This document shows positions 7,198 through 32,209 of a DNA stretch of 32,872 nucleotides, piece by piece. A model generated the notes under the pieces. It was not told the DNA's origin, did no database searches, and was given only the letters and a program-made list of their open reading frames with translations. A program made the position numbers and the translations under genes. Source of the DNA: a virus; the IMG/VR virus record IMGVR_UViG_3300038429_000070, positions 1 to 32,872 of that record; one strand, given 5' to 3'. Within the stretch, counting starts at the first letter, position 1, and every line of letters starts with the position of its first letter.

Positions 7198-7249
7198 TGG
7201 TATAATAAGGGCATTGGACACACCGACTTAGGCGTGTCTATTTTTTTAT
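7198..7249 (+). promoter_or_regulatory. Promoter-hairpin-U-tract module before portal
   Basis: TGGTATAAT (7198-7206) abuts the TAG stop. GACACACC (7217-7224) pairs with GGCGTGTC (7231-7238), with one mismatch, around GACTTA. TA and seven Ts follow, then AT and ATG. With a start site about 7 bases past the -10, the stem-loop lies at the extreme 5' end of the mRNA. Confidence 0.75.
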
Positions 7250-9301
7250 ATGGAAGGAAACCAGAAAATGCAGGGTAGTTTTAATGAGACTATTCCTGAC
7301 GTGAATTATCCCCAAGAGGGACAGATGACGCCTCCGTTAGACCCGTTGCAACTCGATATAGAGGATGAAGAGCTAGTTAAGATAATTGACCAATATGAGG
7401 ACGGATACAATAACTTCTACGAGGATAAATATAACTTATTTGAAAGGCGTAAAAAGAATGAGGTTTACTACTTCGGTAGACAAGTTCAACAAGCCGAGGA
7501 CGAGAAGAGATTAAAGAGTTACGAATCAAGGTATCAGGATAATGTCCTCTATGAAATTATGGGAACGGTTAAACCTTTGGCAATGAGCCGAGTGCCGGAT
7601 ATGATGGCTCTCCCCGGATTTGACTCTGATGAGGCAACGGAGATTGCCGACCAGATAGGTAAGGTTATTGATACCCAGATTAAAGAGCAGGATACAAGAT
7701 TTGTTTTGGGTTTGGCATACAAGCATTTACCCGTTTATTTCACTTCATGTATTAAGACGTGGTGGGACAATGAAGCCGATGATTACGATTTCGGAGTGGT
7801 TCACCCCGACCTTATTAAATTCGATTGGACTTGCCCCACGACTGATGCCGACAGAATGAAATGGGTAATGCAGAAAGTTCCGGCAACGGTACAGCGGATA
7901 GCCCTCAAGTTCCCAAGTAAAAAGAAAGAGTTTTATGCAGAGCTTAAAAAAGACGGACTCTCAATAAGCGAGGATAAAGAACCTTGGAGAGTCCTTGCCA
8001 CGGAGATTAAATATAGCGAGATTTGGTTTACCGAATACAAACGCCATGCCACGGACGAAGTTGAGAGGATTGATGCGGTTGTTTGGAAGTATGGGGATGT
8101 AATACTCGGCAAGATGAAGAACCCCAACTTCGATTACGAGGGTGAGAAAAGATATTTCGCATATGACGATATAAGTGATGAGAACACTAAACGGGCAATA
8201 AACGAGTCAGAATTGGCCCAGCTTCTATTTACGGGACAAATGCCCCCCAATGTTAAAGAACAGCAGGTTTACCATAATTACTTCCGTTTTCCACGAAAGC
8301 CATACTTCTTTATGGGTTACGACCAATGGGGCAAGACCCCGATGGACGAGACAAGCTGGATTGAACAGAATATCCAAAACCAGAAGTCCCTTGATAAGCG
8401 TGGCAAGCAAATAGAAGAGACGTTAGACTCCCGTGGACACCACATATTTAGCAAAGGTGCTTTAACCCCTGCCGATGTAGAAGAGATGGACTTGGATGCT
8501 CCGAATCTTGATTTGTCGGTTGAGGGTAACGTAAACGAAGTTCATGCATATATAGCTCCCGAAAGACCCACTCCTCCAGAGTTTCAGGAAATAGAAAACC
8601 TCAGAAACAGGATGTATGCGGTTGCCCATTCGCAGGCGGTTAGAGGTGAGATTAAAGCCGAGGCTCCCGCAACCAGTAACCAGATAGCCCGTGAAGGAGA
8701 CTTCACCGCAGCCGATGATATTGTCGAGGATACGATTAACCCAGCAGGACAATGGATGGGGGATTGGTCAATGCAGTGGATTAAACTTCGTTATACCAAA
8801 GACCACTTCAGGTGGATTATGGGAGTAGCCGGAGACCCCATTTATCAGAAACTTAATAGAAATATGATTATGGATGGAATGATTATTAAGATTAAATCCT
8901 CAGGAAGCGACAAGATACGGGCACAGAATAATGCTTTAGAGATGGCTAAGATGGAAATGACCGACCCTTATACATTCTTTAAGGATATGGGACTTTCCGA
9001 CCCTGAAGGCCGCACAGAAAAGCTGATTCTTGCCAAGATTGATCCGCAAGCCTACTTGCAGAAAGTCGTCAAGAATCTCAATAGTTCTCAGGCACTTGCC
9101 CAAGCCCTGGAGAATGCTGAATTACAAGAGACGTCAAACTCTCCTGCGTCACCTCCAGTGGCTGGGCCAGTTAACCCAGTAATGCCTCAGGGTGCACCTG
9201 TGCCACAAGCACCCGCAGTGACCCCCAGTCCCATGAATACCGCTAATGTGCCTATTGCACCTCCTACACAGCCCCCTGCGGGTTCACCGAGGGTTTTATG
9301 A
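7250..9301 (+). CDS. Portal protein
   Basis: 683 residues; the dodecameric DNA gate at the capsid vertex. Recognised from length, position after TerL and portal-type sequence: an acidic N-terminus, YFGRQVQQAED, a long body including SYESRYQDNVLYEIMGTVKPLA, the helical IQNQKSLDKRGKQIEETLDSRGHH and SNQIAREGDFTAADDIVEDTINPAGQWM. A Pro/Ala-rich tail (about residues 630-683) is probably disordered. ATG 7250 follows the poly-T directly, but in-frame ATG 7268 has AAGGA (7255-7258) upstream, so the first six residues may not be translated. Stop TGA at 9299-9301. Confidence 0.9.
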   Translation: MEGNQKMQGSFNETIPDVNYPQEGQMTPPLDPLQLDIEDEELVKIIDQYEDGYNNFYEDKYNLFERRKKNEVYYFGRQVQQAEDEKRLKSYESRYQDNVLYEIMGTVKPLAMSRVPDMMALPGFDSDEATEIADQIGKVIDTQIKEQDTRFVLGLAYKHLPVYFTSCIKTWWDNEADDYDFGVVHPDLIKFDWTCPTTDADRMKWVMQKVPATVQRIALKFPSKKKEFYAELKKDGLSISEDKEPWRVLATEIKYSEIWFTEYKRHATDEVERIDAVVWKYGDVILGKMKNPNFDYEGEKRYFAYDDISDENTKRAINESELAQLLFTGQMPPNVKEQQVYHNYFRFPRKPYFFMGYDQWGKTPMDETSWIEQNIQNQKSLDKRGKQIEETLDSRGHHIFSKGALTPADVEEMDLDAPNLDLSVEGNVNEVHAYIAPERPTPPEFQEIENLRNRMYAVAHSQAVRGEIKAEAPATSNQIAREGDFTAADDIVEDTINPAGQWMGDWSMQWIKLRYTKDHFRWIMGVAGDPIYQKLNRNMIMDGMIIKIKSSGSDKIRAQNNALEMAKMEMTDPYTFFKDMGLSDPEGRTEKLILAKIDPQAYLQKVVKNLNSSQALAQALENAELQETSNSPASPPVAGPVNPVMPQGAPVPQAPAVTPSPMNTANVPIAPPTQPPAGSPRVL

Positions 9302-9306
9302 GGTAG

Positions 9307-9315
9307 TGGTATAAT
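9307..9315 (+). promoter_or_regulatory. Extended -10 promoter, leaderless geometry, for the acidic protein
   Basis: TGGTATAAT, six bases after the portal stop; six bases separate it from the ATG at 9322. No hairpin or Shine-Dalgarno sequence could fit. Confidence 0.65.
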
Positions 9316-9321
9316 AATGAT

Positions 9322-9678
9322 ATGAGCGACAACAAAGTCTGGAATGAAAAGATGGGATATATGATGAATCCCGAGGTAAATAAAAAATTGGACGAGGAAG
9401 TGCGTGAGTATCAAAAGGGCAACAAATTGGCGGATGAAATGGATGAAGAGGATGAAGAAGATGACAGGTATGCCATATTTGATAGTGCAGTATTTGACGC
9501 TGTAACCAAAGCCCAAGATTTATATTGTGAGGACGGGGCAAGCTTGAGAACTACTATTGAGGCATTGATTGACTGGCTTGAAGAGTGCAAGGATAAAGGA
9601 CCGGAACTTAAAAAGAAGTTGGAAGAAATAGAGGATGATGATGATGAGGAAGACGAAGAAGAAGAGAGCACCAAATAA
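9322..9678 (+). CDS. Highly acidic protein between portal and scaffold
   Basis: 118 residues with two Asp/Glu tracts (MDEEDEEDD about 40-48, and EDDDDEEDEEEE near the C-terminus) around a helical core (SAVFDAVTKAQDLYC...TTIEALIDWLEECK). Family not recognised. Its place between portal and scaffold is often occupied by head-assembly or minor scaffold-like proteins; acidic tails may interact with basic faces of capsid proteins or mimic DNA. That role is inferred. Confidence 0.8.
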   Translation: MSDNKVWNEKMGYMMNPEVNKKLDEEVREYQKGNKLADEMDEEDEEDDRYAIFDSAVFDAVTKAQDLYCEDGASLRTTIEALIDWLEECKDKGPELKKKLEEIEDDDDEEDEEEESTK

Positions 9679-9689
9679 AAAACCACGAA

Positions 9690-10667
9690 ATGGACACAAA
9701 TAAACCTGACACACAGGAACCCCCCAAAAAAACTGTAACGGAGCAAATTAAGCCCAAATCTATTCGCCAGATTGTGGAAGAAGCCCATAAACCCGTTGAG
9801 GTTAAACCTGAAGTAAAAGAAGAAGTTAAACCCGACAAACTTGAGGAAGATGTAGTTGAGAAGAAAAAGGAACGGGCTAAGCAAAAAGAGGAAGAGCGTA
9901 CCAAGCAGGTTGAGGACATTGCCAAAAAGACTTCAGAGGAAACCGCAACCAAAGTGGCGGAGGAAATGAAGAAAGAGTTTCAGGCTGAGATAGATAAAAT
10001 ACTCCAAAAACCCATTGATGACCAAGCCAAGCAAAAAGAAGCGGACGAACTTGTTGCTTCATGGGAGAAAGAGAAACGCTTGCCCAAGGATTACCCGGAA
10101 CTTATTAAAGAAACTCAACGAATAGCCGAAGTTAAGGCCAAAAGGACTATGGAGGAAATGTTAGCCAAACGTGACGAAGAAGTTAAAGCTCAAAGAGAAA
10201 AAGAAGAAACCGAGAAGAAAACTGCCGAGGAAGCCAAAACCAAACAAGTCGAGGATTTCAATAAAAAGATTAAAGATGAGTTGGAAGAACTCCATGCCGC
10301 TAAAATTCTTGAAAGGCCTTCCAAACCCGAAGAGATAGACAATCCCAATACCACAGATAAAGCCGCCAAAGAGGTACAAAAGTTCTTTGAATACGGAATT
10401 AAATATAATAAAGAACAGGTTTCTAAAGGATTACAGCCCGAAACTTCCTTAACCAAACTTTACTTCTTGCACTATAAGCCCGAAGTTGATGCACACCCCG
10501 AAGTTAAAGAGGACAAACAACCGGCCGGAGCCAACGCACCGATTGCAGGAAATCCAAGTGTGCCGTTAAATGAAGCACCACCCGATAGATACATTTATGC
10601 CAGGGATCATAATAAATCATGGGACCAGTTAAAGGACGAAATAAGTAAAGTATTTCATAGGAGTTAA
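9690..10667 (+). CDS. Capsid scaffolding protein (probable)
   Basis: 325 residues of highly charged, almost continuous coiled-coil sequence (EEVKPDKLEEDVVEKKKERAK, then EEMKKEFQAEIDKIL and REKEETEKKTAEEAK). A flexible Pro/Ala linker (about 270-295) leads to a short C-terminal helix SWDQLKDEISKVFHRS. A long alpha-helical rod with a terminal amphipathic basic helix that grips the capsid protein is the usual scaffold plan, and the gene lies directly before the major capsid gene. No protease motif is visible in it, so scaffold removal may be by exit or by an unseen protease. Confidence 0.82.
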   Translation: MDTNKPDTQEPPKKTVTEQIKPKSIRQIVEEAHKPVEVKPEVKEEVKPDKLEEDVVEKKKERAKQKEEERTKQVEDIAKKTSEETATKVAEEMKKEFQAEIDKILQKPIDDQAKQKEADELVASWEKEKRLPKDYPELIKETQRIAEVKAKRTMEEMLAKRDEEVKAQREKEETEKKTAEEAKTKQVEDFNKKIKDELEELHAAKILERPSKPEEIDNPNTTDKAAKEVQKFFEYGIKYNKEQVSKGLQPETSLTKLYFLHYKPEVDAHPEVKEDKQPAGANAPIAGNPSVPLNEAPPDRYIYARDHNKSWDQLKDEISKVFHRS

Positions 10668-10677
10668 AAGAGGGGGC

Positions 10678-10752
10678 TTGACAGATTTTCTAAACTCGCT
10701 ATAATATAGATTAGTTAACGAGACACACTCGGCCAAGGAGCCGAGTTTTTTT
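10678..10752 (+). promoter_or_regulatory. Promoter-hairpin-U-tract module before major capsid gene
   Basis: TTGACA (10678-10683), 16-base spacer and TATAAT (10700-10705); this module has a consensus -35 but no TGn. GACACAC (10722-10728) overlaps the stem CTCGGC (10728-10733), which pairs with GCCGAG (10740-10745) around CAAGGA. Seven Ts then run directly into the ATG, so no Shine-Dalgarno can exist after the stem. Perfect intrinsic-terminator shape inside a 5' leader. Confidence 0.85.
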
Positions 10753-11892
10753 ATGTTAAAATTTCTTAAACTTTCAATTAAATTTGCACCAGACGGAATA
10801 GCAACTCCGACTCGTGTAGATGTTCTTGGTAACCGCCAACTCTATAACAAGGTGGTTGACCAAATTCTTAATTTCCCCTCCCTTTATGCACGTTTCGTAT
10901 CGCAAGGGGCCAAGTTTGAGGGCAAGACGGAAGATGTAACTTACGATATAACAGCAGACACGCAAGGTCAGTTCTTTACATCTCTTGAAACTTTGAACTC
11001 TTCGGCAGTCAGCACGGCAGTTACAGGAAGCTTTGCCCATACCGCTTACACCCAACCAGTTGTTAGCATAATGCTCGAATCTTTCGCTAATGTGGGAAGT
11101 TTGGGAAGTATCAATCTTGATACTTATAAATACGAGAAAGCGGCTGCACAAGCCATGAATACTCTCGGAGCGTCAATCTACGGACTCGGAACAGCCAATC
11201 AGCCCTTGGGACTTGGAGCAATAGTTGACGATACGACAAACGTTTCGACAATCGGAGGTCTTTCTAAGTCCACTTATTCGGCACTTAACTCGACATTAAC
11301 AGCCTTTAGCGGTGGCAAGCTAACCCTCGCTACAATGGCAACCGAGTATGATTCAGCATTGGCTCCGGGTGCGGCAGATGAAATGCCAAATGTAGGTTTT
11401 TGTACCGCAGCAATCTTCAGCGATTACGAACAACTCTTGACCCCATTTGTCAGACAGAGCTATTCAGAGGTTGGTTATGACAGACTCAAAGTCAGAGGCA
11501 AATATGCGGTCAGGAATAACAGCGAAATGAGAAGTGCCGTAGGATTTGACGCACTTAGCTATCGTGGTACTTATATCGTCAGGGATTACTTCAGCACAGC
11601 CCAGATGCTTTGGTTCTTGAATGAAAAGTATATCGTCTGGAAAGGACGCTATGAAATTTCCGAAGAATATAAAGATGTTTTGGAGAAAGTGGATTTCGGC
11701 ACAATGGAAGCATACGAAGGCACAGGAGCGATTGCCTTGGAAGCTCCCTCGGAATGGAACGGTTGGTTCTATCAGAAACCCCTGACCATTCCCGATCAGG
11801 CAGGCAGAATTGCAAGATTCTATTGTATAGGCCAGACAATCCCGCTTTCTTTCAGGCGTCATGCAAAGGGAACCGGAATAACAGGAGTTTAA
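10753..11892 (+). CDS. Major capsid protein (HK97 fold)
   Basis: 379 residues, typical for HK97-fold capsid proteins without a large insertion. Position directly after the scaffold and behind the strongest-looking promoter in the window supports the call. Features: an extended N-arm (GIATPTRVDVLGNRQLYNKVV), DVTYDITADTQGQFFTSLETLN resembling an E-loop region, a long Ala-rich spine-helix region (KYEKAAAQAMNTLG), and the P-domain/A-domain tail SAVGFDALSYRGTYIVRDYF...FLNEKYIVW. It begins MLKFLKLSIKF, the N-terminal tag shared with other virion proteins here. No N-terminal delta domain is apparent, in line with the separate scaffold gene. Confidence 0.9.
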   Translation: MLKFLKLSIKFAPDGIATPTRVDVLGNRQLYNKVVDQILNFPSLYARFVSQGAKFEGKTEDVTYDITADTQGQFFTSLETLNSSAVSTAVTGSFAHTAYTQPVVSIMLESFANVGSLGSINLDTYKYEKAAAQAMNTLGASIYGLGTANQPLGLGAIVDDTTNVSTIGGLSKSTYSALNSTLTAFSGGKLTLATMATEYDSALAPGAADEMPNVGFCTAAIFSDYEQLLTPFVRQSYSEVGYDRLKVRGKYAVRNNSEMRSAVGFDALSYRGTYIVRDYFSTAQMLWFLNEKYIVWKGRYEISEEYKDVLEKVDFGTMEAYEGTGAIALEAPSEWNGWFYQKPLTIPDQAGRIARFYCIGQTIPLSFRRHAKGTGITGV

Positions 11893-11893
11893 T

Positions 11894-12685
11894 ATGAAAT
11901 ACTTAAAACTATCAGCTAAATACGACTTAATGGCAAGAATGCTCGTGTTGGAGGGCCAAGACCTCTACACTGTAGATACGACCAAAAATCATCTACTCGG
12001 AACTCAAGCATGGGGTGTTGGAGGCAGAATCTACAGGTATGCCCTAGTCGGAACATCAGCCCTTGTCAAAGGCAATCTTTTACAGGAAGCTGTCAATGAT
12101 ACGCAGTTTAACGGACTGGCAGTTCAAACAGCCGGAGTTGTTAATGATACAAGCCTTACTCTTACCAACGGAACCACAACAATAGTTCCTCAGTTATTCC
12201 AAGACGGCTCGGTATTCAGCTACACAGCAGGTTCTGGTATCGCAATCGGTGACCATTACAATATTGTAGGCAATATCACAGGCACCTTGACAACGGGAGG
12301 CACAATTAAGGTTCCTCTTGATAGACCTCTTAGATATGCCTATCCTACAACAACCACGGCCGTCAACCTTGCAAAGAGTCCGTATGGCGGAGTTATTCAA
12401 GCCCCGGCTACGACTCAAACAGGTATTGCGGTAGGTGTAGCAATCTATGAACTTGCAGCCTCAACCTCAACAGTCTGGCAATATGGTTGGATTCAAACTC
12501 ACGGAGAATGTGCAGTACTTTCCGATGGCTCAAGCTTTGCAATCGGAAGCGATGTCGGAACTCCCTCAGGTACAGCCGGATGCGTAACAGTATTTGCAGC
12601 AGGAACAACCCATATGAGAGTCGGTACGGCCAGACAAGCAGCAAGTTCGAGTCACACGATCAGCGTATTCCTTCAGATAGATTAA
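11894..12685 (+). CDS. Capsid decoration-like virion protein
   Basis: 263 residues, immediately after the capsid gene, with AGGAG (from about 11883) as ribosome-binding site. Starts MKYLKLSAKYDLMA, the shared tag. The body is Gly/Thr/Ala-rich beta sequence with TVWQYGWIQTHGECAVLSDG near residues 195-215, a WxWxQTxGxxxVLxDG pattern I associate with small head proteins following phage capsid genes. Probably expressed with the capsid protein and bound to the head surface. Exact role unproven. Confidence 0.7.
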   Translation: MKYLKLSAKYDLMARMLVLEGQDLYTVDTTKNHLLGTQAWGVGGRIYRYALVGTSALVKGNLLQEAVNDTQFNGLAVQTAGVVNDTSLTLTNGTTTIVPQLFQDGSVFSYTAGSGIAIGDHYNIVGNITGTLTTGGTIKVPLDRPLRYAYPTTTTAVNLAKSPYGGVIQAPATTQTGIAVGVAIYELAASTSTVWQYGWIQTHGECAVLSDGSSFAIGSDVGTPSGTAGCVTVFAAGTTHMRVGTARQAASSSHTISVFLQID

Positions 12686-12708
12686 TTCTCTATCTCCAGG
12701 AGAGAATT
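12684..12708 (+). promoter_or_regulatory. Inverted repeat spanning the ribosome-binding site
   Basis: AATTCTCT (12684-12691) and AGAGAATT (12701-12708) are a perfect 8-bp inverted repeat with a 9-base loop, two bases before the ATG at 12711. The AGGAGA Shine-Dalgarno lies at the loop/stem junction, so folding could limit initiation. There is no U-tract, unlike the promoter modules. Confidence 0.55.
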
Positions 12709-12710
12709 AT

Positions 12711-13484
12711 ATGAAATATCTAAAATTACAAGCCAGATTTACTTATACAGGCGTTATGCTTGAGAATCTTCTCCCTATTCCGAGAGGAGTACAGTTTGGG
12801 TCGTCTTTAGCAACTTGGGATTTAACCAATGTCACGGCTCTTAAACTTCCCTCAGGAACAACAATCGGAGGATCGTCCTTAACAGCTCTTGGAACAATCA
12901 CGTCAACTTCAGCCAATGCTTTGGCGGTAGGAGCCAACGGAACGACAAACCCCGCTTTTAACGTAGACGCTTCCGCAAGTTCAGTTGCAACAGGTATTAA
13001 CGTAGCGGGTGCAGCGGCAGCGGCAGGGGTTACAATGTCGGCTCTTTCCTCGGGTTCAAACGAAAATATAATTATTTCTCCCAAAGGAACAGGTTTAATG
13101 GAAAACGACACTCCTATTGATTTCTATACTCCGGTTGCAGTTAACTCAACAACTACTTTAACAGCGGCTCAGGTCTTGTCAGGTTATATAACCTCTACCT
13201 CAGCAGCAGCAGTTACCATGACTCTTCCGACAGGAACAACTCTTGGCAATGCAATCTTAGGTTGTGCACAAGGATTCTCATGGAATCTTTATATTGATAA
13301 CACGGCGGGAGCCAACACAATTACAATGGCTGTTAATACAAACGCTATTCTTTCGGCAGCTGCAGCAGCAGGATCGGGTGCAGGAGCCGGACTTCTGACA
13401 GTTCCAAGCGGTGTTACTGGAGTAGCTTGCTTCAACTTGATGTTTACGAGTGCTACAGCTTACGCATTCAGCCGTACAGCCTAA
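12711..13484 (+). CDS. Capsid-associated beta-rich virion protein
   Basis: 257 residues. Begins MKYLKLQARFTYTG (shared tag). Then low-complexity Ala/Thr/Gly/Ser beta sequence, with SANALAVGANGTTNPAFNVDA, GINVAGAAAAAGVTMSAL and NENIIISPKGTG, a repeat style common in virion decoration or head-fibre proteins, ending LMFTSATAYAFSRTA. Follows the decoration-like gene with an AGGAGA site inside an inverted repeat. Function inferred from context. Confidence 0.65.
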   Translation: MKYLKLQARFTYTGVMLENLLPIPRGVQFGSSLATWDLTNVTALKLPSGTTIGGSSLTALGTITSTSANALAVGANGTTNPAFNVDASASSVATGINVAGAAAAAGVTMSALSSGSNENIIISPKGTGLMENDTPIDFYTPVAVNSTTTLTAAQVLSGYITSTSAAAVTMTLPTGTTLGNAILGCAQGFSWNLYIDNTAGANTITMAVNTNAILSAAAAAGSGAGAGLLTVPSGVTGVACFNLMFTSATAYAFSRTA

Positions 13485-13486
13485 GG

Positions 13487-13494
13487 TGTATAAT
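13487..13494 (+). promoter_or_regulatory. -10 promoter, leaderless geometry, before 13501
   Basis: TGTATAAT (TATAAT 13489-13494) lies three bases after the preceding stop; six bases (AAGGAT) separate it from the ATG. TG abuts the hexamer without the usual intervening base. Confidence 0.55.
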
Positions 13495-13500
13495 AAGGAT

Positions 13501-14064
13501 ATGAAATTCCTTAAACTCTCTCCTAAATTTAACACAGTAAGTGCTTCTTATTTTCGAGATCAAAACAGAGTTCCTTTAACAACTGATGGCATAATCTCTA
13601 CAGATTCACGAACTTTTGTAGGTAATAACGCCACGGTTAACGTCCCCATCTTTGGTTTTACAGGAGTTTTGGAAATCCGTGGTCTTTGGGGTGTGGTTAC
13701 TACAACTTTAGGAGCTAATCACACGGCATCTTCCTGGAGAATTAATGATCAGACAGCTCAGGTGTATTTGACTGCGGTTGGAGGTGCTTCTATTGGAGGA
13801 TATACTCCAGGTTCCATGATTTATAAAGGCGGACTTGTTGCTACAGCTTTAACTGCCAAATCAGCAGCAGCAGGATATATTACAGAACCCGCTGCAACCC
13901 AAATGATTAACTTAACCCCTGTAATTATTGGAGATAAAACAACATTAACAAACAATACAATTGAATATCACTATGCTACAACCGATACTCCAACTTCAGG
14001 AGCCATGACATTCTTCCTTAGATGGTTGCCAATGAGCAATGACGCTTCGGTTACTTCGTTGTAA
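13501..14064 (+). CDS. Tagged virion protein
   Basis: 187 residues. The frame is open from an ATG at 13450, but the start at 13501 is preferred: it does not overlap the upstream gene by 35 bases, it sits six bases after a TATAAT, and it gives MKFLKLSPKFNTVS, the shared N-terminal tag. The body is beta-rich (GFTGVLEIRGLWGVV, SSWRINDQTAQVYLTAVGGASIGG) and ends TFFLRWLPMSNDASVTSL. Likely a capsid-surface or minor virion component; family not recognised. Confidence 0.72.
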   Translation: MKFLKLSPKFNTVSASYFRDQNRVPLTTDGIISTDSRTFVGNNATVNVPIFGFTGVLEIRGLWGVVTTTLGANHTASSWRINDQTAQVYLTAVGGASIGGYTPGSMIYKGGLVATALTAKSAAAGYITEPAATQMINLTPVIIGDKTTLTNNTIEYHYATTDTPTSGAMTFFLRWLPMSNDASVTSL

Positions 14065-14075
14065 AAAAAGTGATC

Positions 14076-14084
14076 TGTTATAAT
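14076..14084 (+). promoter_or_regulatory. Extended -10 promoter, leaderless geometry, before 14092
   Basis: TGTTATAAT is an exact TGnTATAAT. Seven bases (TAGTTAT) separate it from the ATG. Confidence 0.55.
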
Positions 14085-14091
14085 TAGTTAT

Positions 14092-14277
14092 ATGACACCT
14101 ACAGATCTTTTCCAAAAAGTAATGGCGGATAATAATTTAACCGCCACTTTGTCAAAACCTCAGGTAAGATTTATTGAGAATGGGGGAGTAATAGTTGAAC
14201 AACCGCAACTTTTAGTCACTTTTACAACGCCACCCAAACCAGTTGACTCTCAAATACCAGCAGACAAATCAGCATGA
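14092..14277 (+). CDS. Small hypothetical protein
   Basis: 61 residues (MTPTDLFQKVMADNNLTATL...), with a beta-like middle (QVRFIENGGVIVEQPQLLVTF) and a polar C-terminus. First gene of a six-gene block read from the promoter at 14076-14084; its stop overlaps the next ATG (ATGA). No family recognised. Confidence 0.7.
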   Translation: MTPTDLFQKVMADNNLTATLSKPQVRFIENGGVIVEQPQLLVTFTTPPKPVDSQIPADKSA

Positions 14278-16253: not shown

Positions 16254-16300
16254 TGGTATAATATACTAACGGACACACCGCCTCAAAGGGCGGTATTTTT
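16254..16300 (+). promoter_or_regulatory. Promoter-hairpin-U-tract module before 16301
   Basis: TGGTATAAT (16254-16262) follows the TAG stop directly. GACACAC is at 16272-16278. ACCGCC (16277-16282) pairs with GGCGGT (16289-16294); then A, five Ts and the ATG. Confidence 0.78.
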
Positions 16301-18734: not shown

Positions 18735-18743
18735 TGGTATAAT
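18735..18743 (+). promoter_or_regulatory. Extended -10 promoter, leaderless geometry, before GTG 18750
   Basis: TGGTATAAT immediately after the TAG stop; six bases (CCACTT) separate it from GTG 18750. Confidence 0.6.
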
Positions 18744-18749
18744 CCACTT

Positions 18750-18932
18750 GTGGTTGAAAGATTTTTGGGAAATATATCCGTAAGAATATCCAATTTTCTT
18801 GATAAAGCGATGGAACGTGCGTATCAGAATACTTTAGAATTTTATGAAGTCACTCCTCAAAAGTTAAAAGATGAAAAAGAGTCTATCAGAAAAATGGAGT
18901 TAGAAGAAGCTAGAAAAAGAGAATCTTCTTAG
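18750..18932 (+). CDS. 60-residue helical protein, GTG start
   Basis: Product begins with the GTG-encoded Met, then VERFLGNISVRISNF, and ends in charged helix (KLKDEKESIRKMELEEARKRESS). The start is chosen because it is the first codon after the promoter at the distance seen for other genes. It occupies its own transcription unit between two promoters. Function unknown. Confidence 0.6.
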   Translation: MVERFLGNISVRISNFLDKAMERAYQNTLEFYEVTPQKLKDEKESIRKMELEEARKRESS

Positions 18933-18985
18933 TGGTATAATATGAAGTAGGAGACACACTCGCTTTAGGCGGGTGTTTTTATTTT
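18933..18985 (+). promoter_or_regulatory. Promoter-hairpin-U-tract module before 18986
   Basis: TGGTATAAT (18933-18941) follows the TAG stop. GACACAC is at 18953-18959. ACACTCGC (18956-18963) pairs with GCGGGTGT (18969-18976) with one G-U pair. A T-run broken by one A then leads straight into the ATG. Confidence 0.78.
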
Positions 18986-20340: not shown

Positions 20341-20341
20341 G

Positions 20342-20350: not shown

Positions 20351-20356
20351 ATACAT

Positions 20357-20908: not shown

Positions 20909-20932
20909 ATACAATTAGTCTTCGACAATACC

Positions 20933-21334: not shown

Positions 21335-21335
21335 T

Positions 21336-22454: not shown

Positions 22455-22508
22455 TGGTATAATATAGATAAGGAACACATCCGCAAAGTTGCGGGTGTTT
22501 TTTATTTT
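22455..22508 (+). promoter_or_regulatory. Promoter-hairpin-U-tract module before 22509
   Basis: TGGTATAAT (22455-22463) follows the TAG stop. The element is GAACACAT (22473-22480 region), a variant of GACACAC. The stem ACAC..CCGC (from 22475) pairs with GCGGGTGT (22491-22498), with a bulge. A T-run broken by one A continues to the ATG. Confidence 0.72.
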
Positions 22509-23471: not shown

Positions 23472-23497
23472 CATGCCTATAAAACCTATGCTATACT
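23468..23497 (+). promoter_or_regulatory. Promoter of second HNH gene, leaderless geometry
   Basis: TTGACA (23468-23473) overlaps the upstream TGA stop; an 18-base spacer leads to TATACT (23492-23497), preceded by TG plus one base. Only five bases separate the -10 from the ATG at 23503. Confidence 0.7.
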
Positions 23498-23502
23498 AGC
23501 AT

Positions 23503-24084: not shown

Positions 24085-24085
24085 G

Positions 24086-24142
24086 TGGTATAATTAGAGC
24101 CAAGAGACACACTCCTCAAGTGAGGGGTGTTTTTTTATTTAT
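24086..24142 (+). promoter_or_regulatory. Promoter-hairpin-U-tract module before 24143
   Basis: TGGTATAAT (24086-24094) follows the TAA stop. GACACAC is at 24106-24112. ACACTCCTC (24109-24117) pairs with GAGGGGTGT (24122-24130), with one G-U pair, around a four-base loop. Seven Ts, then ATTTAT and the ATG. Confidence 0.82.
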
Positions 24143-27100: not shown

Positions 27101-27889
27101 GACTTTTTCATAGACGTACCCGAAGGACAAATTAATGCTCTATTCGGAGTGGATTCAGACCTATATATGTTTGCAGGTTATAGAGGACAACTTTTGGACT
27201 ACAAAGGTGGATATTTCTATAATACAGGCAACTCAGAATCAAATAAGATTAAAAAGATGCCCCTTCTTGAGTCGAATACTTACACTGAGGTTTTTCCGGG
27301 AGCACTCACAATGTGGCGTGGCCTACTTCATTTTGGACTTTATGCTAACAGCAACTCGACTACCAGCCAAAGAGGTGCTTATTCTTACGGGACACTTAAT
27401 CCTTTTTACCCAGAAGCCCTATCATTTGATTATCCCATCTCTACAGGAAATAGAGGTTCGACAGTTACAATCGGTTTAGTTTATCCTGTAGGGCAAAACT
27501 TACTAATCGGCTGGCAAGATGGGTCAGGATATGGGTGTGATGTGGTGAACTTCAACAACCCTCCTGCTGATAATGGTGAGATTCAGTTATTCTTAAATGA
27601 CGGAGGCAAGATGTGGCACGATGATGATAATTTGGCTATAAAAGCAGTCTATTCTCCTCTTAGAACTGGAGAAAGTATCACCCCTGAGTACGCCTTAGAT
27701 AGACAATCTTTTAATCAATTGACTACAGTTTCAACAGTAGGAAGCAGAAATACCAAACAACTTATAGCCAACGGTAGAAGTTGTGAAGTCCAAATAGGAG
27801 TTACAATGACACAAACAAACGGTACATCTCCGACTTTGTTAGGTTTAACATTAGATCAAGACCCGCTTGAGAGCGAGGAAGCACTATAA
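24143..27889 (+). CDS. Tail nozzle/adhesin-like protein with nested LamG and Gly-rich domains
   Basis: 1248 residues, the largest gene. N-terminal 1-165 (SVDFRNDPQAITLLPGALKE, then SYFSGDDYVYLTSD) and C-terminal 860-1248 (ERYLAVWDGANYLPNF, KVRCFAQWRQYLAIGVW, QNLLIGWQDGSGYG) look like a beta-propeller split by insertions, as in podovirus tail nozzles. Between them is a LamG/concanavalin-like domain in two pieces: 176-228 (SLSVTGDLTLETFFKC...SYKLDLYG) and 608-715 (ARLGISNDGTAYEYL...GLLNDMRIWANVQT). Residues about 229-605 are a Gly-rich block with many GGGGG runs, resembling polyglycine-II adhesin tips. Likely receptor binding at the tail end. Family assignment is by eye. Confidence 0.72.
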   Translation: MAKNESTDKKEEQKRWIGGISDYLKEGSNFQVTSQFYFGRSVDFRNDPQAITLLPGALKESGGTVTDLLKWADIVPTSLTVFLYGDSGNLYQRTSTPSWSKIGQVPASHGNGLSYFSGDDYVYLTSDSSIARYGPTANSPVFTPNFLQAQGGVPTNTASLLLASASSMYGSAADSASLSVTGDLTLETFFKCNTLPAVGSSMTLIGKWDESGATRSYKLDLYGVSGYFGNGQDGALTVSVNTTEAPIDSACTGTSGTQALTATNASFAQGQVILIHQSQGTGAGKWERNTINGYTTGTITTGTPLVNSYTSGAQVRVLKQYTNVTVNTGITYTAKAWNGTVGGILAFLASGTVTVTGNIVADGGAGSQALNGQTTGGGSGGGFRGGNAVATDSPNQGYTGEGTAGASVAQTTANGNGGGGAYINGPNNGSGGGGGNGTVGQIGQASKDVGNDSDTWIAGAAGASAGSADLTTMMFGGGGGGGVNRTNTCGGGGAGGGIIFITATTLTVTGAITSNGGAGAYDGNTGSQKHAGGGGAGGSILLKAQTATLGSSLITANAGAGGGIYSQGGGGAGSVGRIHLDYYTSYTGTTTPTLDYAQDNTLVTTNTTQARLGISNDGTAYEYLSMNLSSLTTGVWNRLSVSWASASSLATFYWNAVSLGTFTGTKTAIHDNASLLYVGANKNATVVTNYFDGLLNDMRIWANVQTATQIFNNYLIQISPSLGGLNAYYKYNSAYTDATANTNTLTSHGSPTFSTDVPFAGATTRLDIDVAVALTGQTYTLLTAIAENSADMLPFTPVNDPQASVGFFVDTKGTGDWTVTVHDQQNRVIATKTILNASIPASGFVEFIFANPWRLVFKQSYHMHLTVSTGTSKVVTGTTANFSTAEYTTYFGFLVPDTQFHPVTQFQYQPLGGSLTGAEIIGNERYLAVWDGANYLPNFITLTPGWKVRCFAQWRQYLAIGVWKGGNIYDLSHGRIYFWTGYQPAYDFFIDVPEGQINALFGVDSDLYMFAGYRGQLLDYKGGYFYNTGNSESNKIKKMPLLESNTYTEVFPGALTMWRGLLHFGLYANSNSTTSQRGAYSYGTLNPFYPEALSFDYPISTGNRGSTVTIGLVYPVGQNLLIGWQDGSGYGCDVVNFNNPPADNGEIQLFLNDGGKMWHDDDNLAIKAVYSPLRTGESITPEYALDRQSFNQLTTVSTVGSRNTKQLIANGRSCEVQIGVTMTQTNGTSPTLLGLTLDQDPLESEEAL
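24824..25957 (+). other. Gly-rich domain nested inside LamG coding region
   Basis: Encodes about residues 228-605 of the nozzle/adhesin-like protein. It starts with a FGNGQDGALTVSVNTTEAP lead-in domain. It then becomes glycine-dominated (GGGSGGGFRGG, GGGGGNGTVG, GGGGGGGVNRT, GGGGAGG), ends at SVGRIHLDYYTSY, and the LamG strands resume. Coordinates are approximate. Confidence 0.6.
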
Positions 27890-28257
27890 TGATTGACAAA
27901 AAAGACCCAAAAGATAAACAACCTCAAAATGAGAGGAGAGGCCAATCGTGGACTACTTTTGAAAGTATTTTACCAGGAGGAATTAGACCTCAAAACTTGG
28001 TACCTAATCCTGTAGCCAAGGGAGATATATTCTTTACAGGCCCTAATGCTAATTTTAATCGAGTGGGGATAGGGACTACAGGACAAGTACTACAAGTAGT
28101 TGGAGGTGTGCCAACATGGGGAAGTGCACCTTTAAGTGGTTTAGCTACAAATCGTCCAGTAAGTGGGAGATTTGTGGGCGATATGTATATAAATACAGAC
28201 ACACCATCGCTTTCGGTATGGATTGGTGCAAGTTGGAAGTCATCAACCCTATCTTAA
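27889..28257 (+). CDS. Small virion protein
   Basis: 122 residues; ATG shares one base with the preceding TAA. A charged N-terminus (MIDKKDPKDKQPQNERRG) precedes a beta-rich part with NRVGIGTTGQVLQVVGGVPTW and GDMYINTDTPSLSVWIGASW. This GTTGQVLxVxGGxPxW pattern is a common short module in phage tail-fibre proteins. Translationally coupled to the nozzle gene, it is probably a tail component or a fibre tip. Confidence 0.68.
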   Translation: MIDKKDPKDKQPQNERRGQSWTTFESILPGGIRPQNLVPNPVAKGDIFFTGPNANFNRVGIGTTGQVLQVVGGVPTWGSAPLSGLATNRPVSGRFVGDMYINTDTPSLSVWIGASWKSSTLS

Positions 28258-28260
28258 AAG

Positions 28261-28308
28261 GTGTATAATTATGACATAGGGCACACCTTTTGATGTGCCT
28301 TTTTTATT
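28261..28308 (+). promoter_or_regulatory. Promoter-hairpin-U-tract module before 28309
   Basis: TATAAT (28264-28269) is preceded directly by TG, as at 13489. GGCACA (28280-28285) pairs with TGTGCC (28294-28299) around an 8-base loop; six Ts, then ATT and the ATG. The GACACAC element is replaced by GGCACACC. Confidence 0.75.
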
Positions 28309-29130
28309 ATGAAATACTTAAAACTACAATCTAGGTTTGATACAACTATTCCTAGTTCACCGGATCTATCTGCGGCTACGGACAATTCTACAAATGGAGT
28401 CGATACAGGGAATAACGCCATAGCAAGTTTTGACCCGACAACTACAGCCGGAGCTCAGCAAACAAGTTTAGGAAATGGAGATAATAGTTTGGGTTCACTT
28501 TTAGGAGGAGAAACGAATAGTTATATATCTAATTTTGCCAATGCTATACCATCAATTTATAAGACTGGTATGGATATGTACAATGTCCCTAATCTTGAAA
28601 CAAACGCCACTAATTTAACCAACCGAGTTACCAATGCTACACCCAATGCTTACATTGCAGCCAAAGGCTATGATGTGGACGCCACGGATATAAATAACGG
28701 GATAGCCAATAGTACGGCATATTTAACACCTCAAGCCAATGCTGCCACAGCTAATGCAAATACTGCTGCCGGTCTTGCGGGTACTTACATTTCAAACGCC
28801 TTATTACCTTACCAGGCACAAGGTACTTTAGTTACGAATCAAGAAGCCGCACAAGCCACGGGTTGGAATCAAACCCTACAAGATCAATTCAATGGCCTTA
28901 TAGACAAAATGCAGAGTGGTATAACCCTATCAGCTAATGAGATGAGCTTGGCACAATCCTTGGCTGCAACTGAAGAAAAATACCAAGAAGCAGTTGCAAC
29001 CGCAGAGATACCACTTACAGCAAAAGAAACAACCGCCGGAAATACACTTACAAATGCTTTAACTAATACAATTATAAATCCATCTCAGATGTCCAAAGCT
29101 AGTAAGACAGGGATAGCAACTTATTCTTAA
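28309..29130 (+). CDS. Tagged internal (ejection-type) virion protein
   Basis: 273 residues. Starts MKYLKLQSRFDTTIP, a full copy of the shared tag. The rest is Ala/Asn/Thr-rich and largely helical (NAATANANTAAGLAGTYISNAL, SLAQSLAATEEKYQEAVATAE), unlike the beta-rich tagged head proteins, and resembles core or ejected proteins of podoviruses. It precedes a lytic transglycosylase and a 768-residue helical protein, matching an ejectosome gene order. Function inferred from context. Confidence 0.65.
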   Translation: MKYLKLQSRFDTTIPSSPDLSAATDNSTNGVDTGNNAIASFDPTTTAGAQQTSLGNGDNSLGSLLGGETNSYISNFANAIPSIYKTGMDMYNVPNLETNATNLTNRVTNATPNAYIAAKGYDVDATDINNGIANSTAYLTPQANAATANANTAAGLAGTYISNALLPYQAQGTLVTNQEAAQATGWNQTLQDQFNGLIDKMQSGITLSANEMSLAQSLAATEEKYQEAVATAEIPLTAKETTAGNTLTNALTNTIINPSQMSKASKTGIATYS

Positions 29131-29131
29131 A

Positions 29132-29554
29132 ATGAATGATAATCCATACGCAATGTTTCTGGATCAACCAAGTACAACACCTTCTCCACAGGTGAATGAA
29201 TCTAGTGATTCAAATCCATACTCAATGTTTCTGAATAATTCCCAAACAGAGGATCCGATTTCTTTAATTCAAAAGTATTTTCCACCGTCTGAATGGTCGA
29301 ATGCAGAAAAAGTAATGCAAGCGGAGTCAGGTGGAAAATCCAATGATGTGGGAGACAACTATCCGATAAACGGGCAAACAATTCCAAGTTATGGATTATT
29401 TCAAATACGGGCTTTACCAGGAAGACCCGATCCTTCAAAATTAGTTGATCCCGACTTTAATGTACAATATGCAGCTAATATGTGGAAATCTCAAGGCTGG
29501 GAACCATGGACTACTGCTAGAAAAATGGGGTTACCAGGAACAACACCTTTATAA
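29132..29554 (+). CDS. Virion-associated lytic transglycosylase/lysozyme-like protein
   Basis: 140 residues. Residues 41-130 have the SLT/lysozyme-like pattern: AEKVMQAESGG (probable catalytic E65), a YGLFQIR motif (87-93) and a closing YAANMWKSQGWEPWTTA (113-129). It would cut peptidoglycan glycan strands as DNA enters the cell. The N-terminal 40 residues carry the motif NPYxMFL twice (NPYAMFLDQ, NPYSMFLNN), separated by 24 residues, possibly a docking peptide. No signal peptide or holin is adjacent, so it is more likely carried in the virion than used for lysis. Confidence 0.85.
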   Translation: MNDNPYAMFLDQPSTTPSPQVNESSDSNPYSMFLNNSQTEDPISLIQKYFPPSEWSNAEKVMQAESGGKSNDVGDNYPINGQTIPSYGLFQIRALPGRPDPSKLVDPDFNVQYAANMWKSQGWEPWTTARKMGLPGTTPL

Positions 29555-29557
29555 AAT

Positions 29558-31864
29558 ATGTCACAAATAAGCGACTTTGTCGATACACTAATTAAAGCTA
29601 AAAACGCTATAGGAGGCGATATAAATAATGTGGCAAGTTCTGCATACAACAATACTGTTGGTGCGACAGGAAGTTTTGTAAATGATACCTTGAATAATTA
29701 TAGTAAACAAGCTGGACTTGCTAATGATGCCATACCAGGAATAGCAGGAACAGTAAACAATGCAGTATCGGCGGTCACTGGCGGAAAGGTATCTCCAGAG
29801 ACAGCAGGAAAGTATGGTTCTTTAGCAGCTTCTTTTGTTCCGATGTTAATGGCTGGTACAGAACTTTTCCCAGAAGCAGAAGGAGATCTAACTTCCGAAC
29901 AGGCCGCTATGCGAGCCCAGACAACAGCGGAAAAAGCAGCGACAACAGAAACACCACCAGAAGTTGCACCAGTTGAAAATCCAGTTACAACCGAAGCAAC
30001 CACACCCCAAACCGGAGATACCTTGATCCGTGATATGCGTACTACTAAAAATCCTAATTTCAAGGTATCGCCTGAAACACAAACGGAAGATCAAGCGTTA
30101 GGTTTTCATGGAACTACAAATCCTGCAACTGATTTTTCAGGAGAAAACACACTCCCAGGTGGTCAGGTGCCGACCGAACCAACCCTACCAACTGGCGGAA
30201 AACTGCCTCCAACACAAGAAAATCCTAATCCTATTGAACCACCACTCCCAGGTGCTAAAACTATCCCAGGCGAAGTTCCAGGAGGACTTACTCCTGCACA
30301 ACAGGAAAGAATGACTGCTGATCCTCAGGGTAACCCTACGGGTTCAGCCGATCTGGTTGGAGTGAAAGTCACACTTCCTCAATATTCGGATAATGTCAAT
30401 GTTAGGGACTGGGAAGCCAAATCTCAGAATGCAGTTGATAGATTGGTACCTGGTACCTCTGCACCAGAAATAGAAGATAATATTAAACCGACTATAACTA
30501 AAATCAGTGGCCAAATATCCAGTATTATGGAAAATAATCCTAAGTCAACAAATGTAAATGATTTAATAACTGATTTTAAGCAACAATTACAAGATGATGG
30601 TATTTATAGGCAGTTTGGCCCAGGTAAAAGACCAATTATAGATCAAGACGCTGCTAATTATATTAAAGAACTGCAAAATTCTTCTGGAATGACAGGCGAT
30701 AATATTTCTGATCAAGAACTTATGAATTTCAAGAAAAGTATCAGTCAAGATATGGGTGTAGTATCAGATAAAAAAGCTGCTGGTATTCCCCTTGATGTAC
30801 ATGATAGGGTTGTACAAACCGCTTACGATGCAGTCGATCAACGACTTGCAGGGCCAAACGGATTACATCCTGGGATAAAAGAATTAACAACGGATCAGAG
30901 TAGTTTGTATAAAGCTCAAGACTCTGCATATAAGTCGGCAGAATCTCAAACCGCTGAGATAACAACTGCACCAAATGCCCCAAATGCTTTACAAAGATGG
31001 AATAATTATGTGAAACAAAACCCAGCAGTTGGAGTTCCCCTCGAATTGGCCGGTCTGGGTACTTTAGGAACAGGTGGATTTTTTGGGGCAAAAGCAGTAC
31101 TTCCTGCTATAGGTGGAGCAATTGCCTATGGTGCGGAAGCTATTAAAAATAAATTAGGAGAAGGAAAAACCCCTCAAACAACATCTTTCACTCCATCTAT
31201 TCAACCAGATTCAACCACTGGAATATCCTATGATTCTAAAAAGGATATTTATTCAGCCCCTTCACCCCAATCACAAGGATTAGTACCTGGTGTTATAGCT
31301 CAAACAAGTAAAATAAACGCACTTAATCAAAAAGCAGCCGATGAAGCACTGACCCAACCTTTGCAAGCAAAGACAGACTATCAGGAGGCGTCAAATCTTC
31401 AAACAACTTTAACAAATACATCTCCTTTGGGGGGAGCTTATTCTGATTTGCTGAAAACAATCACCCTGGTAAACGAAGTAAGACCACTTCTCAAACAAGT
31501 TCCACCAAACATTCTTAACCAAAATCAAACCTACGATCAATTCAAAAAGGGATTAAATGGTAAATATGGAGCATTAACAGGCCTACTTGATGTTATCAGT
31601 CAGAATACTAATTTTCCGATCTCGGGAGTTTTGTCAGGGCAAGCGTTGGAAGATTATTTGGTTGGTGCTCTCGATTCAGCGGGAACTAATTACTTAAAAG
31701 TTTATCAACAACAGACAGGTTCGAATAATGTTACAGGGACAGCAAGTGGAGGTAATAATCTTCCACCGACTCTGGATAATTCACAACCATCTAACTTACC
31801 CGATGTGGCCAATTTTAGTATTCCTGGTGGAGGCCCTGGTGCAGGTTTACCCCAACTAAAATAA
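29558..31864 (+). CDS. Large internal virion protein (ejection-type)
   Basis: 768 residues. Hydrophobic, Ala/Gly-rich stretches at about residues 60-100 (AIPGIAGTVNNAVSAVTGG, GSLAASFVPMLMAG) and about 490-530 (VGVPLELAGLGTLGTGGFFGAKAVLPAIGG) could insert into membranes. Between them lie a Pro/Thr/Glu-rich linker (125-265) and a helical domain. The C-terminus is disordered, rich in Gly, Asn and Pro. Size, order after the transglycosylase and membrane-active look fit internal virion proteins that build a DNA-ejection conduit. No enzymatic motif seen. Confidence 0.65.
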   Translation: MSQISDFVDTLIKAKNAIGGDINNVASSAYNNTVGATGSFVNDTLNNYSKQAGLANDAIPGIAGTVNNAVSAVTGGKVSPETAGKYGSLAASFVPMLMAGTELFPEAEGDLTSEQAAMRAQTTAEKAATTETPPEVAPVENPVTTEATTPQTGDTLIRDMRTTKNPNFKVSPETQTEDQALGFHGTTNPATDFSGENTLPGGQVPTEPTLPTGGKLPPTQENPNPIEPPLPGAKTIPGEVPGGLTPAQQERMTADPQGNPTGSADLVGVKVTLPQYSDNVNVRDWEAKSQNAVDRLVPGTSAPEIEDNIKPTITKISGQISSIMENNPKSTNVNDLITDFKQQLQDDGIYRQFGPGKRPIIDQDAANYIKELQNSSGMTGDNISDQELMNFKKSISQDMGVVSDKKAAGIPLDVHDRVVQTAYDAVDQRLAGPNGLHPGIKELTTDQSSLYKAQDSAYKSAESQTAEITTAPNAPNALQRWNNYVKQNPAVGVPLELAGLGTLGTGGFFGAKAVLPAIGGAIAYGAEAIKNKLGEGKTPQTTSFTPSIQPDSTTGISYDSKKDIYSAPSPQSQGLVPGVIAQTSKINALNQKAADEALTQPLQAKTDYQEASNLQTTLTNTSPLGGAYSDLLKTITLVNEVRPLLKQVPPNILNQNQTYDQFKKGLNGKYGALTGLLDVISQNTNFPISGVLSGQALEDYLVGALDSAGTNYLKVYQQQTGSNNVTGTASGGNNLPPTLDNSQPSNLPDVANFSIPGGGPGAGLPQLK

Positions 31865-31975
31865 ATTTATAATTCCTTTCCCAACCCATTTGAAGAACTT
31901 AATTATTCCTTTGAAAATAAAGTACAATAAAAAAAATATTGCTAATATCTGACAACCTGCTATTATTCCATCCAT
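31856..31975 (-). CDS. 39-residue single-pass membrane peptide
   Basis: On the minus strand: MDGIIAGCQILAIFFLLYF, then IFKGIIKFFKWVGKGIINLF. Residues 4-21 form one hydrophobic span followed by an amphipathic Lys/Phe/Trp helix, a layout seen in small holin-like or membrane-active peptides. Start ATG is 2 bases after the stop of the zinc-ribbon gene on the same strand, suggesting a two-gene operon. Its stop overlaps the last codons of the + strand 768-residue gene. Only the gene pattern supports it. Confidence 0.55.
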   Translation of the reverse strand: MDGIIAGCQILAIFFLLYFIFKGIIKFFKWVGKGIINLF

Positions 31976-31977
31976 AC

Positions 31978-32079
31978 TTATTTGTTCCAATCCTTTCTTT
32001 GACATTTAGGACACTTAACAGGTTTCTCAACCCTTGGTATCCACTTAAAACCACATTTTTTACAAGTATATTTTATCAT
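31978..32079 (-). CDS. 33-residue zinc-ribbon micro-protein
   Basis: On the minus strand: MIKYTCKKCGFKWIPR, then VEKPVKCPKCQRKDWNK. CKKC (6-9) and CPKC (23-26) with the FKWIPR...KPVKCPKC..KDW context is a well-formed single zinc ribbon, so I regard this as a real gene despite its length. Such mini-ribbons often bind DNA or transcription proteins. A TTGACA lies on this strand at 32132-32137 (complement of TGTCAA), but a good -10 is not clear. It is oriented against all neighbours. Confidence 0.7.
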   Translation of the reverse strand: MIKYTCKKCGFKWIPRVEKPVKCPKCQRKDWNK

Positions 32080-32126
32080 AACATTTTGCCATAACCTTTT
32101 AATTTTATTAATTCATCTAGATGTAG

Positions 32127-32132
32127 TATAAT
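32127..32132 (+). promoter_or_regulatory. Secondary -10-like TATAAT in the divergent region
   Basis: TATAAT lies 33 bases upstream of the main -10 at 32165, without TGn or a good -35. It overlaps, on the other strand, the TTGACA that could serve the minus-strand micro-genes, so the region may be a divergent control point. Confidence 0.3.
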
Positions 32133-32161
32133 GTCAAGAACGAAAATTGATTAGTTAATTG

Positions 32162-32209
32162 TGGTATAATTACTCAACAGACACACTGAGTTAGTGTGTC
32201 TTTTTTATT
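32162..32209 (+). promoter_or_regulatory. Promoter-hairpin-U-tract module before 32210
   Basis: TGGTATAAT (32162-32170). GACACAC (32180-32186) itself pairs perfectly with GTGTGTC (32194-32200) around TGAGTTA. Six Ts, ATT and the ATG follow. This is the cleanest copy, because here the conserved element is the whole left arm of the stem. Confidence 0.85.

What the first reader, a model, noticed from the sequence alone, without database searches (positions are those of the whole stretch)
7198..32209. Repeated promoter-hairpin-U-tract-ATG leader module in front of eight virion transcription units
At 7198, 10678, 16254, 18933, 22455, 24086, 28261 and 32162 the same order occurs: a -10 TATAAT (usually TGG before it), about 10 bases (16 at the capsid gene), a GACACAC element (variants at 22474 and 28280), a stem-loop of 6-9 bp, 5-7 Ts, then the start codon within 0-6 bases. 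The stems differ in sequence yet keep pairing by compensatory change, which argues for a selected RNA structure. If transcription starts about 7 bases after the -10, the hairpin is at the extreme 5' end of the mRNA. It looks exactly like an intrinsic terminator, yet lies between promoter and gene, and leaves no Shine-Dalgarno site. Possible roles: 5' stabilising cap hairpin, attenuator opened by a phage antiterminator, or SD-independent initiation through a U-rich S1 site. I know of no described phage system with this exact layout.
Basis: partly seen in the sequence, partly recalled or inferred. Interest (0 to 1): 0.85.

Follow-up and report, generated by a model that had tools for sequence, protein, structure and literature searches.

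The report
Two-hairpin switch guarding phage late genes
A family of uncultivated phages places the same tiny RNA switch, two overlapping hairpins of which only one can form and one of which looks like a transcription stop signal, between the promoter and the first gene of its virion gene groups, which suggests an unrecognised way of turning on late phage genes.

Summary
In detail: at all eight sites a -10 box is followed by a hairpin, a U-tract and a start codon. It is not chance. In 26 syntenic phage contigs the same scan found 74 such modules in 1.9 Mb (both strands). It found none in 2.76 Mb of unrelated viral contigs and none in 756 kb of one Patescibacteria bin; in the capsid-bearing loci it found 64 on the coding strand, none on the opposite strand and none after shuffling.

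"GACACAC" is the loop of a second, small hairpin at about +2 to +5 of the transcript: 3-5 bp with a 5-7 nt loop, usually A...A. Its 3' arm is the 5' arm of the terminator-like hairpin, so the two structures exclude each other. The small stem varies (45 arm pairs) but stays paired (83 of 97 leaders, against at most 63 in 1000 within-phage swaps).

Best reading: a promoter-proximal attenuator regulon, terminating by default and opened by an unidentified factor that holds the small hairpin. The logic matches ANTAR or BglG/LicT antitermination, but the defining features tested are absent. Termination, factor and host are unproven. Genes without the module often start leaderless, which explains the missing Shine-Dalgarno sites.

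The parts
7201..7249 (+). Module 1 (portal gene, ATG 7250): -10 7201-7206; small hairpin about 7215-7225 (TGG-ACACA-CCG); terminator-like hairpin about 7215-7240 with an internal mismatch; U-tract then ATG
   Evidence: PHROG portal
10678..10752 (+). Module 2 (capsid gene, ATG 10753): -35 TTGACA 10678, -10 10700-10705; small hairpin 10719-10731 (CGAG-ACACA-CTCG); terminator-like hairpin 10727-10746; T-run
   Evidence: PHROG major head protein
16257..16300 (+). Module 3 (ORF 16301): -10 16257; small hairpin 16270-16280 (CGG-ACACA-CCG); terminator-like hairpin 16277-16294
18936..18985 (+). Module 4 (ORF 18986): -10 18936; small hairpin 18951-18961 (GAG-ACACA-CTC); terminator-like hairpin 18956-18976
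22458..22508 (+). Module 5 (ORF 22509, tail-fibre-like): -10 22458; small hairpin 22472-22482 (GGA-ACACA-TCC); terminator-like hairpin 22477-22498
24089..24142 (+). Module 6 (ORF 24143, 1248 aa): -10 24089; small hairpin 24104-24114 (GAG-ACACA-CTC); terminator-like hairpin 24109-24130
28264..28308 (+). Module 7 (ORF 28309, conserved in 21 of 26 phages): -10 28264; small hairpin 28278-28288 (AGG-GCACA-CCT); terminator-like hairpin 28278-28301
32165..32209 (+). Module 8 (ORF 32210): -10 32165; small hairpin 32178-32188 (CAG-ACACA-CTG); terminator-like hairpin 32179-32201
9310..9324 (+). Leaderless promoter of the same -10 type without hairpin (TATAATaatgatATG)
13489..13503 (+). Leaderless promoter (TATAATaaggatATG)
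18738..18752 (+). Leaderless promoter with GTG start (TATAATccacttGTG)
6734..7197 (+). Leaderless TATAAT plus GTG 6745: small double zinc-ribbon protein found in 25 of 26 relatives, directly upstream of the first module; candidate trans factor (speculative)

Best explanation
The eight leaders are copies of one RNA switch, a promoter-proximal transcription attenuator. Shown by sequence: transcription from an extended -10 promoter should give an RNA in which a small hairpin (3-5 bp, 5-7 nt loop, usually A...A) starts at about +2 to +5. The 3' arm of that hairpin is the outer part of the 5' arm of an intrinsic-terminator-like hairpin and U-tract that ends just before the start codon. The two hairpins exclude each other, and the longer one is far more stable. 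Inferred: by default RNA polymerase terminates about 30-40 nt after starting, so virion genes stay silent. When a trans-acting factor (most simply a phage-encoded RNA-binding protein made from the hairpin-free leaderless genes) binds the small hairpin by its loop, the terminator loses its outer 4-5 pairs and its contact with the U-tract, polymerase reads through, and all virion units switch on together. Opening the hairpin would also clear the start codon for ribosomes.
For: Mutual exclusivity and covariation: of 97 promoter+hairpin leaders in the family, 83 have a small hairpin with score >=8. The mean score is 8.46, against 6.02 (sd 0.35, max 6.96) when stems are swapped within a phage and 3.91 (max 5.07) when swapped freely, 1000 swaps each. 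With the register fixed by the ACACA motif rather than by pairing, 17 leaders give 96.1% paired cells (shuffles 69.3%, slid registers 27-50%), 15 cells changed on both sides, 0 of 500 shuffles reach this. There are 45 distinct arm pairs while the loop stays similar. Energetics: terminator median -11.3 kcal/mol, small hairpin -1.5; terminator stronger in 87 of 87, so the switch needs a ligand. The small hairpin takes a median of 4 outermost terminator pairs and usually leaves 2-5 away from the U-tract. Specificity: promoter+small hairpin+gene start 71 on the coding strand, 0 on the opposite strand; 74 modules in 1.9 Mb of family DNA, 0 in 2.76 Mb of unrelated viral loci; 0 in 756 kb of the Patescibacteria bin that holds one of these phages; no real hit outside the phage contig in 380 Patescibacteria genomes. 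Regulon logic: modules precede capsid (23), cluster 28309 (15), portal (12) and fibre-like genes (14); none precedes GroES, GroEL, terminase or the zinc-ribbon gene, of which GroES and the zinc-ribbon gene often start leaderless. Terminator-like design: the U-tract abuts the stem while the gap to the start codon varies 0-23 nt. Two phages have a second unit in tandem before the capsid gene without a promoter of its own.
Against: No RNA data: neither the start sites, nor termination, nor antitermination has been measured. No RNA-binding protein was identified; ANTAR and CAT domains are not found in the relatives, and the conserved zinc-ribbon candidate is near neutral in charge with no fold match. 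Terminators this close to a start site (about +30) may work poorly. Related phages are not independent observations, and within-phage swaps still leave 53 of 97 paired because arms in one phage resemble each other. The small hairpins are only 3-5 bp.
Confidence: 0.62

Rival explanations
1. Translation switch: the hairpin next to the start codon blocks ribosome loading, and formation of the small 5' hairpin (by a protein or by the arriving ribosome) frees the U-rich stretch and the start codon; the U-tract is a ribosome/S1 landing site.
For: In many modules the start codon is 0-8 nt after the U-tract, inside the ribosome footprint, and no SD is present; the two-state RNA would work the same way.
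Against: The U-tract is kept against the stem, not against the start codon: the gap to the start ranges 0-23 nt, and in some phages an SD-like GAAAGGA or GGAG lies between. A translation switch does not need a U-run directly at the stem base. Leaderless genes in the same genomes need no leader.
Confidence: 0.17
2. 5' stabilising hairpin: a structure at the mRNA end that blocks 5' exonucleases or end-processing, with no switch.
For: The structure starts at about +2 to +5 and the stems pair compensatorily.
Against: It does not explain a second mutually exclusive hairpin with a conserved loop, the U-tract, or tandem internal copies without a promoter.
Confidence: 0.07
3. Insulator: an ordinary terminator for read-through from the upstream unit that happens to lie downstream of the next promoter; promoter-proximal polymerase ignores it.
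For: Modules lie at the boundaries of gene groups; few other strong terminators are seen in the window.
Against: An insulator would be placed upstream of the promoter; being within 10-20 nt downstream in every phage, and sharing an arm with a conserved-loop hairpin, is unexplained.
Confidence: 0.08
4. Polymerase-modifying antitermination (lambda N/boxB-like or HK022 put-like): the small nascent hairpin recruits a factor to RNA polymerase, or acts on it directly, and the modified polymerase ignores the terminator.
For: Small 5' hairpin with a 5-6 nt A...A loop immediately upstream of a terminator; same outcome as the best explanation.
Against: A persistent polymerase modification needs no arm shared with the terminator and would not need a fresh site at every unit; overlap is nearly universal here. 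Recalled knowledge, not tested against boxB or put sequences.
Confidence: 0.06

Closest known systems
ANTAR antitermination leaders (EutV, NasR, AmiR; PMC3369931, PMC3369936)
   Same: Small hairpin with conserved terminal-loop residues whose distal arm overlaps the proximal terminator stem; a protein that stabilises it shortens the terminator and separates it from the U-tract; several operons in one genome share the element.
   Different: ANTAR leaders have two hairpins (P1 and P2), both with loop residues A1 and G4. Here there is one hairpin, no room for a P1 between start site and terminator, loop position 4 is A or T in 44 of 45 six-nt loops, and no ANTAR domain passes the cut-off in 24 relatives.
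BglG/LicT/SacY family RAT antiterminators
   Same: Protein-stabilised antiterminator hairpin mutually exclusive with the terminator.
   Different: RAT is a longer stem interrupted by two asymmetric internal loops and bound by a CAT-domain dimer (PMC3369936); here 3-5 bp uninterrupted stems and no CAT domain.
Lambdoid phage antitermination (N/boxB, Q, HK022 put) and Xp10 P7 (PMC6624301)
   Same: Phage genes switched on past terminators.
   Different: Those systems modify RNA polymerase. Here each transcription unit carries its own terminator plus competing hairpin immediately after the promoter.
Start-associated and stoperator repeats of actinophages (recalled from memory)
   Same: Repeated short conserved elements before many phage genes.
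   Different: Sequence-conserved DNA sites; here the sequence of the arms varies while the pairing is kept.

Membership tests
Intrinsic terminator | GC-containing hairpin directly followed by a U-run | tested here: met
   97 leaders, median -11.3 kcal/mol, T-run of 4-8 in 87 of 97
Intrinsic terminator | Causes RNA 3' ends | not testable with these tools
   needs Term-seq or in vitro transcription
Two-state transcription attenuator | Competing hairpin that shares an arm with the terminator | tested here: met
Two-state transcription attenuator | Factor or signal that selects one state | not testable with these tools
   no factor identified
ANTAR target RNA | Two hairpins (P1 and P2) upstream of the terminator | tested here: not met
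   a single small hairpin starting 8-11 nt after the -10 in 67 of 83 leaders; no space for P1
ANTAR target RNA | Six-nt loops with A1 and G4 | tested here: not met
   position 1 is A in 39 of 45, position 4 is never G
ANTAR target RNA | ANTAR protein encoded by the phage | tested here: not met
   0 of 24 relatives over the cut-off (none of the 14 control genomes rings either, so sensitivity is unproven); a host protein is not excluded
BglG/LicT RAT | CAT RNA-binding domain protein | tested here: not met
   0 of 24 relatives, 4 control genomes ring
Any Rfam family | Match at gathering score | tested here: not met
   0 matches in window and relative G002
lambda N/boxB or HK022 put | boxB or put sequence with polymerase modification | not tested
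   no model run; compared only from memory

The most novel reading that the evidence does not exclude
A whole phage family controls its late regulon with arrays of minimal promoter-proximal attenuators, opened by a new type of phage RNA-binding antiterminator that reads a 3-5 bp hairpin by an A...A loop at the very 5' end of the nascent transcript. The conserved zinc-ribbon protein encoded just upstream of the first module is a possible reader: all six phages with the two-ribbon form have five-nt AC-type loops, but that is confounded by phylogeny.
Probability: 0.45. Interest if true: 0.9.

Novelty: new variant of a known kind. Interest (0 to 1): 0.78.

Why it matters
Known phage antitermination works by modifying RNA polymerase. 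A regulon of short leaders, each holding its own terminator and competing hairpin, would be a different and compact design for timing late genes, and a portable on-switch of about 40 nt. It also gives a clear sequence signature for phages whose hosts use leaderless mRNAs and have few genetic tools, so their gene control can be read from metagenomes.

Tried and rejected
A BLAST of 5.4 kb against isolated phages gave no match. Pattern scans with GACACAC or GGACAYACC in IMG/VR gave mostly chance matches; real ones lie only in relatives. GACACAC as a conserved protein-binding DNA site was rejected because its flanks covary as a palindrome across modules. A host-derived leader was rejected: 0 modules in 756 kb of the Patescibacteria bin and none in 380 Patescibacteria genomes outside the phage contig; the two other covariance-model hits gave no module in the same detector and lie beside ordinary genes. 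A firm host assignment was not possible: the capsid is found in one of 380 Patescibacteria genomes, and the other two bin hits (Scalindua, Terriglobia) may be misbinned. An AlphaFold model of the zinc-ribbon protein (pLDDT 77) had no significant PDB match. The covariance models captured only part of the modules (49 hits), so model-based absence is weak on its own; the scripted scans carry the argument. A fourth arm after the U-tract pairing with arm 1 was seen in a few leaders but not tested.

Full report
What is there. The window is a 32.9 kb IMG/VR virus record with portal, capsid, terminase, GroES and GroEL genes. Each has a -10 box (seven of the extended TG type), a hairpin that folds far better than shuffled sequence, a run of T, and a start codon close behind.

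Not chance, and not only this phage. Using the capsid protein I collected relatives from IMG/VR and one contig from a Patescibacteria genome bin. A mechanical scan (TATAAT, hairpin, T-run, start codon opening at least 60 codons) found 64 modules on the coding strand, none on the opposite strand and none in shuffled sequence. In 26 syntenic contigs the same kind of scan gave 74 modules in 1.9 Mb, both strands counted. It gave none in 2.76 Mb of unrelated viral loci and none in 756 kb of the Patescibacteria bin, although TATAAT boxes and leaderless starts are present there (77 leaderless starts, against 3 after shuffling).

The overlooked hairpin. Reading the leaders side by side showed that the GACACAC element is a loop with closing arms: CGAG-ACACA-CTCG, CGG-ACACA-CCG, GAG-ACACA-CTC, GGA-ACACA-TCC, AGG-GCACA-CCT, CAG-ACACA-CTG. 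Relatives have GAGT-ATTTTA-ACTC, GGAG-AAATAA-CTCC, CGGT-ACATTC-ACCG, AGTC-ACTATA-GACT and others. The 3' arm of this small hairpin is part of the 5' arm of the terminator-like hairpin, so the two cannot coexist.

Tests of the small hairpin. With the register fixed by the ACACA motif, 17 leaders give 96.1% paired cells and 15 double changes, reached by none of 500 shuffles; slid registers give 27-50%. Across 97 leaders of the family, 83 have the small hairpin, against a mean of 53 and a maximum of 63 when stems are exchanged between leaders of the same phage, and a mean of 29 when exchanged freely. There are 45 arm pairs, and the loop mostly starts and ends with A. The small hairpin begins 8-11 nt after the -10 in 67 of 83, which is about +2 to +5 if transcription starts 7 nt after the -10, as the leaderless genes indicate. 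The terminator is stronger in 87 of 87 (median -11.3 against -1.5 kcal/mol). Forming the small hairpin removes a median of 4 outer pairs and leaves a short stem detached from the U-tract.

Which genes. Modules precede capsid (23), the 28309 cluster (15), portal (12) and fibre-like genes (14), and some unassigned genes. None was found before GroES, GroEL, terminase or the zinc-ribbon gene; GroES and the zinc-ribbon gene often start leaderless. The capsid leader is the most constant site. The phage without scan hits, G014, proves on reading to have the same units with longer terminator loops, for example CGAG-ACTTA-CTCG before its capsid gene. Two phages carry two units in tandem before the capsid gene, the second without a promoter.

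How it most likely works. The design is that of a transcription attenuator: a terminator formed by default, and a competing hairpin too weak to win alone, with a conserved loop that something must hold. The simplest holder is a phage RNA-binding protein made from hairpin-free genes, which would then switch on all virion units together. The steps shown are the two exclusive structures, their conservation and their gene targets. The steps inferred are termination, the factor and the timing.

Rivals. A translation switch would use the same two states but does not explain why the U-run stays against the stem while the gap to the start codon varies from 0 to 23 nt. A plain stabilising hairpin or an insulator does not explain the second hairpin. 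Polymerase-modifying antitermination does not need the shared arm.

Relation to known systems. The logic is that of ANTAR and LicT antitermination, in which a protein-stabilised hairpin shortens the terminator and parts it from the U-tract (PMC3369936; PMC3369931). ANTAR targets need two hairpins with A1 and G4 loop residues; here there is one hairpin and position 4 of six-nt loops is never G. No ANTAR or CAT domain passes in 24 relatives, and Rfam has no match. Literature searches for phage late genes with such leaders found nothing, within an open-access library only. I therefore call it a new variant of a known kind.

Candidate factor. Only a few small proteins are shared by nearly all these phages. 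One is a zinc-ribbon protein directly upstream of the first module, with a leaderless start in 14 phages. All six phages with its two-ribbon form have five-nt loops of the AC type, but these are also the closest relatives, the protein is not basic, and its model matches no solved fold. This is a lead, not evidence.

Limits. The phages are related, so counts are not independent events. The host is uncertain: one Patescibacteria bin of 380 genomes searched carries such a phage, with matching G+C (0.458 against 0.454). No experiment supports termination.

Noticed in passing
window 9310, 13489, 14079, 18738, 20345, 6734: Promoters of the same -10 type with a start codon 5-8 nt downstream: leaderless genes. 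148 such starts on the coding strand of the capsid-bearing loci against 2 on the opposite strand and 1 in shuffles.
   Followed up: yes
window 1155-3070: Phage-encoded GroES (Cpn10) and GroEL (Cpn60) pair, conserved in 23 of 26 relatives.
   Followed up: partly
L060:1561-1720 (G008) and G011 10256-10400: Two tandem small-hairpin/terminator units before the capsid gene; the second has no promoter of its own.
   Followed up: partly
L220, L223, L229, L249 leaders: A minimal reading frame start-codon-NNN-TAA directly after the U-tract when the real start codon lies further downstream (ATGTCCTAA, ATGGCCTAA, ATGCTCTAA, GTGGTCTAA).
   Followed up: no
window 10678, G008 and G031 capsid leaders: Capsid promoters carry a TTGACA -35 box in addition to the -10, unlike the other modules in the window.
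   Followed up: no
window 502-1038, 4333-4749: Pentapeptide-repeat protein and a weak SprT-like match in the region before the terminase gene.
   Followed up: no
window 3067-3393: Conserved 108-aa protein with two CxxC pairs and a QPxRxGxLxKEY motif, 23 of 26 phages, no Pfam match.
   Followed up: partly
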